From assembly GCF_000196655.1 (NCBI RefSeq), contig NC_014253.1, forward strand, positions 186,001 to 250,000: DNA of 64,000 nucleotides. Direction: 5' to 3'. Each line of letters opens with the position of its first letter. Positions within the stretch are counted from its first letter, which is position 1. This document shows positions 59,365 through 61,482 of the stretch, piece after piece. This DNA comes from Methanohalobium evestigatum Z-7303. Lineage in GTDB: Archaea > Halobacteriota > Methanosarcinia > Methanosarcinales > Methanosarcinaceae. A program made the position numbers and the translations under genes. Under the pieces are notes generated by a model, which had not been told where the DNA came from, ran no database searches, and was given only the letters and a program-made list of their open reading frames with translations.

Positions 59365-59755
59365 ATGAATGAGAAGAAAAAGAACAGTATCAATTGGCTC
59401 CTTACCTCGGTTGCGATTTTGTTGGTTTTATCAGCTGTTATTTTGAGTCTGTGGGAGAAACAATCTGATGGAGAACTTGATTTTACTTTAAAACTTGATA
59501 AAGAACAGGTAAAAAGGGTATGATTTCCAGACTCAGGTTATCTTAACAAACACTGGAAATTATACATTCAATGTTTGGGAATTAAAGCATCAAATCAGTT
59601 ATGATATACATATCTATGGTTCTGATGGGTCCAGAATAAAATATGTAGGTGGAGTAATACAGAGAACTCAGTTGGGAAACGATTTTTTAAGATAATTAAG
59701 TCCTGGAGAATCTATTAAGTCAACTAGGGAATTCGAAACAGAAGACAGGGAATAA
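59365..59755 (+). pseudogene. Disrupted secreted/membrane protein gene, 5' part
   Basis: From ATG 59365 the frame encodes a cytoplasmic basic stretch, a transmembrane helix (WLLTSVAILLVLSAVILSLW) and an extracellular start, then hits TGA at 59521. The coding continues in another frame (YDFQTQVILTNTGNYTFNVW ...), interrupted by TAA at 59693 and ended by TAA at 59753. The 3' end reappears after the transposon (61348-61482). Dead gene with a frameshift, a stop and an insertion. Confidence 0.75.
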
Positions 59756-59884
59756 AACAGTTCCCAAATTATGCAACAAATTTGTATAATATTAGACGCA
59801 ATATGTAATAATTGTAAAAAGTGTTAAAATATAAATAATCAATCAAACAGAAGACAAAACATACGAAAACGAATGAGTTGAAGA

Positions 59885-59946
59885 TGTTCTTACTATCATC
59901 ACGGTTTTTTCCGCAAAACTTTACGGAAGTCGAAGTCATAAGAACA
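59885..59946 (+). repeat. Left-end stem of the second TnpB element
   Basis: TGTTCTTA (59885-59892) pairs with TAAGAACA (59939-59946), and inside it TTCCG (59909-59913) pairs with CGGAA (59924-59928). The imperfect subterminal hairpin matches IS200/IS605-type ends. Confidence 0.65.
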
Positions 59947-59978
59947 AAAAATTAAGGAGACAAACGAAAAACTATTTG

Positions 59979-61292
59979 ATGGTTATAATGTCGTTTCGGA
60001 ATAAAGATAAATTTAAAAATACAGTTACATTCACTCTAAAACAGGAGATTTATTTCTCCAGTGAAGATGAGAATATCCTCGATGGACAATCGAAGATATG
60101 TAACTGGTTATATAATTATCTTTACGACATGGTCGAATATGACTATAAGTATAATGATGGTAAGAACAAACTCATCAATAAATACAACTTGAGAAACTAG
60201 GTTCCACGTTTAAAAGAAGAAAAACCATTCTTGAAAACTGTTTATTCTTCAGTTCTGAAAAACGTGGCGATAAGGTTAGCAAAATCTTATGAAAACTTTT
60301 TCCAGATACCTGAAGTAGGACATCCTCAACACAGAAGTTGGAAAAACAAATGGTTCTCACTCGAATATGAAGAAAAAAGTGGATGGAAGATAGATGGTAA
60401 AACCGTAATCATAAGTTTAGGTAAAGACAAATATTCCAAACAACTAAAAGTCGTTGGAACTCTAAATGAGAAACCAAAACTTGATGGTGGTGAACCAAGA
60501 GCATTCAGATTGGTGAAACAACGGGGGAAATTTTATGCTATATTTACAGTTGTAAAAGAAAAACCTCCAAAAAAAGATGTGGAAAAATGGATTGCTCTCG
60601 ACCCTAATCATAAGAACTTCTTAACAGCTTATGATTACAGAGGAAATACAATCGAATTCCAGAATTTAGACGAGATAAAATACTGGGATGGCGTGATTGA
60701 TGATTTAATGTCTAAACGAGATAACTGCAAACGCAAATCTCAATTTATACCTATAAGTGAAACAAGAGGGTATTGGGAACCAAGTAATAACTGGAAAAGA
60801 TACGACAAAGCGCTGGAAAAAGCACTGCATACCAAACGAGAACAGACAAAGTTGGGTATGTTTACAATAGCAAACTATCTTTGCAAAAACTACGATAAAA
60901 TCCTAATGGGTGATTATACGCCATCGAAAGAAGTTTCACCGCATAAAAAAGCAAATCGCAGTATCTTAAATCAAACTCTCATCGCAAAATTGCGTGGAAC
61001 AATTGAATGGGTTTGTGAAAAATCAGGAAAAACATTCAAAAAAGTTGATGAGAAAAATACAACAAAAAAATGCTGTATTTGTGGAGACGTAGAACAGAAG
61101 GATCCAGATGTAAGATCTTTTACCTGTAAAAAATGCGGTCAGGCCCTTTCGAGAGATATAAACAGCGCTGTAAATATTGCTAAAAAAGAAATGCATTTGT
61201 CTGGCACGGACTACAAAGGTAATCTCAAAGAACCTTTGTATATTGCATATTGGAGATACAATAACTCGAAAATAAATATGCAAACGAGTTAA
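59979..61292 (+). CDS. tnpB: TnpB-like protein read through an in-frame UAG (candidate pyrrolysine)
   Basis: The frame from ATG 59979 encodes the N-terminal TnpB domain, reaches TAG at codon 74 (60198-60200), and continues in the same frame with no other disruption for 363 codons to TAA, total 437 residues. After the TAG come VPRLKEEKPF, the RuvC-I Asp in KWIALDPNHKNF (about residue 208), a motif-II region ILMGDYTPS with Asp where Glu is usual (312), the zinc finger CCICG and CKKCG, and RuvC-III Asp in SRDINSAVNI (393). If UAG is decoded as pyrrolysine the protein is intact; if not it is a two-piece pseudogene. The homologous residue is probably Leu (TTG to TAG). Confidence 0.7.
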
Positions 61293-61294
61293 AC

Positions 61295-61347
61295 GAGAAA
61301 GATGATACTTTCTCACCTAAGTTTACATGATTTTATGTAAATTTAGG
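61295..61347 (+). ncRNA. Right-end hairpins / candidate omegaRNA of the second TnpB element
   Basis: GAGAAAG (61295-61301) pairs with CTTTCTC (61308-61314). Immediately after, a 13-bp stem with one G-T pair is formed by 61316-61328 and 61335-61347 around GATTTT. Two stacked hairpins directly after tnpB are typical of the structured 3' transposon end from which the TnpB guide RNA derives. Confidence 0.55.
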
Positions 61348-61482
61348 AGTGCGGGAACTACTCTTGACAGGGGAAATTATACCATTAATGCAGTATATCA
61401 TACTCATTTTGGTGAAAACATCTGGATACCTTACTGGATTGGAAGCGTGGAATTCAATAATGCAACTCTTGTTGTAAAATGA
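61348..61482 (+). pseudogene. Disrupted secreted protein gene, 3' part
   Basis: After the transposon a frame of 44 codons reads SAGTTLDRGNYTINAVYHTH and FGENIWIPYWIGSVEFNNATLVVK before TGA 61480. It has no start codon and looks like the C-terminal beta-sandwich of the protein begun at 59365. Confidence 0.65.

What the first reader, a model, noticed from the sequence alone, without database searches (positions are those of the whole stretch)
60198..60200. In-frame UAG inside an otherwise intact TnpB, in a region with no verified TAG stop
A TAG at codon 74 splits a TnpB gene; the frame continues with all downstream domains and no second lesion. I read the stop of every gene I list and found only TAA or TGA. 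In Methanosarcinales UAG is read as pyrrolysine, and in-frame UAGs in transposase-type genes have been noted in that lineage. This would be a pyrrolysine-containing RNA-guided nuclease whose full-length form depends on Pyl status, or a freshly arising pseudogene. The alternative is simple decay.
Basis: partly seen in the sequence, partly recalled or inferred. Interest (0 to 1): 0.72.

Follow-up and report, generated by a model that had tools for sequence, protein, structure and literature searches.

The report
TnpB gene with one pyrrolysine codon
A mobile-element nuclease-family gene (TnpB) in a salt-loving methanogen carries an in-frame TAG that would end it in most organisms, but this microbe has all but stopped using TAG as a stop and has the full pyrrolysine machinery, so the codon is most likely a one-letter glutamine-to-pyrrolysine change rather than a broken gene.

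Summary
The TAG at 60198-60200 is real. It is codon 71 of a 434-codon TnpB (codon 74 from the upstream ATG), with no other lesion. The genome holds a second copy of the whole 1.6-kb element, 95% identical and intact, with CAG (Gln) there; two copies in a sister species also have CAG. So the TAG is a single C-to-T change unique to this copy. The genome (almost certainly Methanohalobium evestigatum) encodes pylT(CUA), pylS and pylBCD. In 483 kb sampled, TAG ends 1 of 229 ORFs of 250 aa or more, against 17.5% in a pylS-negative relative and 8-11% in two other pyl-positive relatives. Two single-copy chromosomal genes also run through in-frame TAG; in one, the TAG is at the same column in the sister species. 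TAG is therefore effectively a pyrrolysine sense codon here, and this TnpB is best read as a full-length Gln71-to-Pyl variant. The substitution looks incidental: copies are decaying generally, TAG is not over-represented among their nonsense changes, it is not conserved, and the residue is variable. The subfamily also lacks the canonical RuvC-II Glu, so nuclease activity is unproven. Translation was not tested.

The parts
59748..61354 (+). Whole IS200/IS605-type (IS1341-like, TnpB-only) element; a second full-length copy with 95% nt identity lies at about C1:480.5-482 kb
   Evidence: blastn of L001 vs L002: 1529/1608 identical, ends shared at both sides
59748..59765 (+). Left-end palindrome GGGAATAAAACAGTTCCC
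   Evidence: sequence; shared start of both copies
59988..61292 (+). tnpB, 434 codons if TAG is read as sense (ATG 59988, TAA 61290-61292)
   Evidence: NF040570 guided_TnpB 147 bits over cut-off 100; Pfam PF07282; profile match to ISDra2 TnpB 8bf8/8h1j E=7e-16
60198..60200 (+). In-frame TAG, codon 71; CAG (Gln) in the intact sister copy, in the decayed copy L003 and in two copies of a sister species
60600..60602 (+). RuvC-I Asp205 codon (aligns with the first catalytic Asp of ISDra2 TnpB)
60909..60914 (+). RuvC-II site: Gly308-Asp309 where ISDra2 TnpB has its catalytic Glu; same in the intact copies
61155..61157 (+). RuvC-III Asp390 codon
61316..61347 (+). Right-end hairpin CCTAAGTTTACATGATTTTATGTAAATTTAGG; expected position of the 3' part of an omega/reRNA (inferred)
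   Evidence: fold z=-3.7; conserved in both copies

Best explanation
The tnpB copy carries a single C-to-T change, CAG to TAG, at codon 71. In this organism TAG is no longer used as a normal terminator and is decoded as pyrrolysine by tRNA-Pyl(CUA)/PylS, with Pyl made by PylBCD. Whenever the gene is transcribed and Pyl is available, the ribosome therefore inserts Pyl and makes full-length TnpB with Pyl in place of Gln71, in the N-terminal part of the protein, far in sequence from the RuvC residues. In effect this is a missense change under a Pyl-reassigned code, not a nonsense change, and most likely selectively near-neutral. Shown: the TAG, the CAG in sister copies, the pyl genes, the near-absence of TAG stops, TAG in two other conserved chromosomal genes, and purifying selection on the frame downstream of the TAG. 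Inferred: that this mRNA is expressed, that Pyl is inserted efficiently here, and that the protein works.
For: pylS 367 bits, over cut-off; tRNA-Pyl anticodon CUA next to pylS; pylBCD cluster at C1:894 kb. TAG ends 0.4% of ORFs of at least 250 aa versus 17.5% in a pylS-negative relative (Fisher P=3e-8), 7.8% and 11.3% in two pyl-positive relatives that still use TAG stops (P=0.002 and 0.0002). A FAD/NAD oxidoreductase gene runs through an in-frame TAG with its NAD-binding domain continuing, and the sister species has CAG there. A PAS/histidine-kinase gene has TAG at the same column in both Methanohalobium species. The two convincing non-mobile genes in the sample that end in TAG have a TAA or TGA within 3 codons. 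dN/dS between the TAG copy and the intact copy is 0.17 overall and 0.15 downstream of the TAG; the TAG copy's own branch has 9 nonsynonymous to 8 synonymous changes, below the neutral expectation (P=0.01-0.09 by transition bias). Position 71 is Gln or Asn in relatives, not invariant.
Against: No protein-level data. Other TnpB copies in this genome carry in-frame TAA and TGA too, so TnpB decay is going on. TAG makes up about 4 of 10 nonsense changes in TnpB copies, just the 33-44% expected from codon usage, so TnpB copies alone give no sign that TAG is better tolerated. Three TnpB copies end in TAG where siblings end in TAA, so TAG at an ORF end is tolerated. No significant structure downstream of the TAG (z=-0.7 to -1.3), though none is required for Pyl insertion (PMC9499178).
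Confidence: 0.8

Rival explanations
1. A freshly arising pseudogene: the CAG-to-TAG change inactivates or strongly reduces the copy because aRF1 still terminates at most UAGs. The element survives on TnpB supplied in trans by the intact copy.
For: Other TnpB copies carry TAA, TGA and frameshifts; nonsense types in TnpB follow neutral expectation; an intact aRF1 is present. Rother and Krzycki 2010 (PMC2933860) describe 20-30% readthrough of an introduced UAG in Methanosarcina acetivorans.
Against: That reporter is from a lineage that still uses TAG as a stop (7.8% in G074, by size probably M. acetivorans); here TAG stops are nearly gone, and chromosomal genes with conserved downstream domains rely on TAG readthrough.
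Confidence: 0.15
2. A Pyl-dependent switch: full-length TnpB is made only when Pyl is made (methylamine growth), and the UAG is kept by selection for that coupling.
For: pyl machinery present; supply of Pyl could vary with growth (PMC9499178 gives competition between Pyl-tRNA and release factor as the likely control).
Against: TAG is private to one copy; the intact copy in the same genome and the sister-species copies have CAG; no enrichment of TAG in TnpBs; the intact CAG copy would bypass any switch.
Confidence: 0.03
3. Sequencing error at one base (C read as T).
For: Cannot be excluded without reads; the difference is one base.
Against: Genome is 2 contigs with 99.89% completeness; independent TAG/CAG cases in the same genome, and a TAG shared with the sister species, show that such codons are real here.
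Confidence: 0.02

Closest known systems
Methanosarcina transposases with in-frame amber codons (reviewed in PMC2933860; clusters transposase1/2 in PMC3639795)
   Same: Mobile-element gene in a Pyl-using Methanosarcinaceae with a single in-frame UAG
   Different: There the amber codon is conserved among family members; here it is private to one copy and the gene is an IS605-type TnpB
Pyl-reassigned archaeal code, all TAG read as Pyl (Kivenson and colleagues, Science 2025; from memory, not held in the library)
   Same: TAG nearly eliminated as terminator, in-frame TAG in otherwise ordinary genes, complete pyl set
   Different: I could not check whether M. evestigatum or this gene is in that study; no proteomics here
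ISDra2 TnpB (PDB 8bf8, 8h1j), IS200/IS605 family
   Same: RuvC-I and RuvC-III Asp, Zn-ribbon (TNB) domain, element with end hairpins
   Different: RuvC-II Glu replaced by Gly (followed by Asp) in this subfamily; only about 30% identical to its nearest other TnpB group in the genome; Pyl codon in one copy

Membership tests
TnpB (IS200/IS605, guided_TnpB) | Match to curated TnpB profile over its cut-off | tested here: met
   NF040570: 147 bits vs cut-off 100; PF07282 60 bits vs 26.3
TnpB (IS200/IS605, guided_TnpB) | RuvC D-E-D catalytic triad | tested here: inconclusive
   D205 and D390 align; the catalytic Glu of ISDra2 aligns with Gly308, next to Asp309, in this copy and in intact relatives. 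The canonical Glu is absent; a shifted or rearranged acid is possible but not shown. So: a TnpB by descent, nuclease activity not claimed
TnpB (IS200/IS605, guided_TnpB) | Zn-ribbon CxxC...CxxC within RuvC | tested here: met
   Cys362/365/380/383 invariant
TnpB (IS200/IS605, guided_TnpB) | omega/reRNA from the right end and RNA-guided cleavage | not testable with these tools
   Right-end hairpin present and conserved; no transcript or assay
Pyrrolysine-encoding organism | pylT with CUA anticodon, pylS, pylB, pylC, pylD | tested here: met
   Profile or tRNA-finder matches for pylS, pylT, pylD; pylC and pylB recognised by reading the ORFs next to pylD
Pyl-reassigned code (TAG as sense) | TAG near-absent as gene terminator | tested here: met
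   0.4% of ORFs >=250 aa vs 17.5% in pylS-negative relative; sample of 20% of the genome, not all of it
Pyl-reassigned code (TAG as sense) | In-frame TAG in conserved non-methyltransferase genes | tested here: met
   Oxidoreductase and histidine-kinase genes
Pyl-reassigned code (TAG as sense) | Pyl detected in peptides at TAG positions | not testable with these tools
   needs mass spectrometry

The most novel reading that the evidence does not exclude
A TnpB-type RNA-guided protein that contains pyrrolysine and whose full-length production depends on the cell's Pyl supply, so that a mobile element's homing or retention function is coupled to methylamine metabolism.
Probability: 0.05. Interest if true: 0.75.

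Novelty: new member of a known kind. Interest (0 to 1): 0.42.

Why it matters
It shows how 'nonsense' should be read in a Pyl-reassigned genome: one-base CAG-to-TAG changes in mobile and housekeeping genes behave as Gln-to-Pyl missense changes, and gene finders that use the standard code would wrongly split or discard such genes. It also gives natural test sites (TnpB codon 71, the oxidoreductase, the histidine kinase whose TAG is shared by two species) for whether Pyl outside methyltransferases is functional or only tolerated.

Tried and rejected
TnpB copies as a test of TAG tolerance: I tallied nonsense codons in about 70 TnpB loci; TAG is not enriched, so this gave no support. Copy L069 first looked like a second intact TAG TnpB, but an internal deletion removes its C-terminus. 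PYLIS-like structure after the TAG: not significant. AlphaFold2 model of the TnpB: mean pLDDT 47.8, too poor to place residue 71, so no fold search was run. Coding-score scan for in-frame TAG genes missed this TnpB itself, so it undercounts. Literature: no paper in the held library joins TnpB with pyrrolysine except one hit that names each word once; the Pyl-code paper is not held.

Full report
Observation. The TAG stands at 60198-60200 inside an open frame of 434 codons from ATG 59988 to TAA 61290-61292. The protein matches the TnpB profile NF040570 (147 bits, cut-off 100), Pfam PF07282 and, as a small profile, ISDra2 TnpB of known structure (E=7e-16).

Copies. The same genome holds a second, intact copy of the entire element (1,529 of 1,608 bases identical, both ends shared), a decayed fragment (L003), and an internally deleted derivative (L006). 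The intact copy and L003 have CAG at this codon, and so do the two copies of a sister species that cover it (L086, L087). The TAG is therefore one C-to-T change on the branch to this copy. Between the two copies dN=0.020 and dS=0.121 (ratio 0.17), with 0.15 downstream of the TAG. With the sister-species copy as third sequence, the TAG branch has 9 nonsynonymous (TAG left out) and 8 synonymous changes, below neutral expectation at P=0.01 to 0.09 depending on transition bias. The gene was under constraint for at least much of that branch; the age of the TAG within it is unknown.

Decoding machinery. The genome (chromosome 2,242,317 bp plus a 163,915-bp contig) encodes PylS with tRNA-Pyl(CUA) beside it, and pylD next to pylC and pylB about 595 kb away. 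A split into pylTS and pylBCD is reported as peculiar to Methanohalobium evestigatum among Methanosarcinaceae (PMC9499178; PMC3941956), and the replicon sizes agree with what I remember of strain Z-7303, so the organism is almost certainly that one. One full-length aRF1 is present.

TAG as a stop. In 483 kb (20 spaced 20-kb stretches, the window and the pylTS region) TAG ends 7 of 447 ORFs of at least 100 aa and 1 of 229 of at least 250 aa, while 17.7% of stop-type triplets in the DNA are TAG. I inspected the seven: mtmB (the known Pyl enzyme); a FAD/NAD oxidoreductase interrupted by TAG; a TnpB ending in TAG; two genes with TGA or TAA within 3 codons; two that look spurious. With the same method TAG ends 17.5% in a pylS-negative relative (G117), 7.8% in G074, 11.3% in G041, 3.6% in G073, and 0% in G031 and G017 (Fisher tests). 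Amber avoidance in Methanosarcinaceae is known (PMC3941956); the near-complete loss here is shared with two other genera.

TAG as sense in other genes. The oxidoreductase is found in 71 of 112 genomes of the family, one match each; only this genome and one large genome (G074) have a TAG inside it. Pfam's NAD-binding domain runs across the TAG. The sister species has CAG at that codon, more distant relatives AAA or ACA. A PAS/histidine-kinase gene has TAG at codon 66, and the sister species, 86% identical in the searched part, has TAG at exactly the same column with diverged flanks. A shared TAG with intact frame on both sides is hard to explain unless TAG is translated.

Mechanism. Taken together, the likeliest course is that UAG at codon 71 is read by Pyl-tRNA and the full-length TnpB carries Pyl at position 71. 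In a genome where TAG has left the set of terminators, CAG to TAG is a missense change. Position 71 lies in the N-terminal part, well before the RuvC residues, and is Gln or Asn in relatives. Steps shown: sequence, copies, machinery, stop avoidance, other TAG genes. Steps inferred: expression, efficiency at this site, and protein function.

Limits. Within TnpB genes as a class there is no sign that TAG is tolerated better than TAA or TGA: about 4 of 10 nonsense changes are TAG, and codon usage alone predicts 33-44%. Many copies are decaying. So I find no support for a selected Pyl switch. The nuclease label also needs care: the catalytic Glu of ISDra2 TnpB aligns with Gly308 in this copy and in the intact copies. 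They may use another acid (Asp309 or a rearranged one) or may be nuclease-dead.

Position relative to known systems. In-frame amber codons in Methanosarcina transposases are published (PMC2933860; PMC3639795), there conserved across family members. A fully Pyl-reassigned archaeal code has, from my memory, been published in 2025 (not held here). This case is a new member of that known kind: the first TnpB I know of in it, with no conserved role visible.

Noticed in passing
L054:10847-11545 (C1:2138847-2139542): FAD/NAD oxidoreductase gene with in-frame TAG at codon 175; CAG in the sister species. A better-suited test gene for Pyl decoding than the TnpB.
   Followed up: yes
L055:12875-14290 (C1:2222875 onward); L203 in the sister species: PAS/histidine-kinase gene with TAG at codon 66, at the same column in two Methanohalobium species: candidate conserved non-methyltransferase Pyl site.
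   Followed up: partly
Loci L170-L181 (genomes G031, G017): Two other pyl-positive genera show no TAG-ended ORF of 250 aa or more in 120-kb samples, whereas G074 and G041 show 8-11%: TAG loss as a stop differs sharply among pyl-positive genera.
   Followed up: partly
L210 (G020:C1:10399-11460): A near-intact TnpB in another pyl-positive genus with a single TAG where relatives have Trp in a conserved stretch (KLEYKAE-W-YGK).
   Followed up: partly
L111, L099, L115: Three TnpB copies of one family end in TAG where siblings end in TAA; if TAG is always sense they gain C-terminal extensions from right-end sequence and beyond.
   Followed up: partly
whole genome: About 75 TnpB loci over the profile cut-off in a 2.4-Mb genome, in several families, an unusually high load.
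   Followed up: no
window 59365-59747 and 61355-61482: The element sits inside an older gene: joining the flanks gives one frame (...STREFETED / RGNYTINAV...), itself with an in-frame TAA, so the target was probably already decaying.
   Followed up: partly
L006 (C1:1154764-1154996): Internally deleted derivative of the same element keeping both ends and the 3' end of tnpB, as expected of a trans-mobilised remnant.
   Followed up: no
L222 (C1:957112-957900): Second aRF1-like stretch (134 bits, below cut-off) with one TAA inside; may be a decayed release-factor paralogue or a related protein.
   Followed up: no
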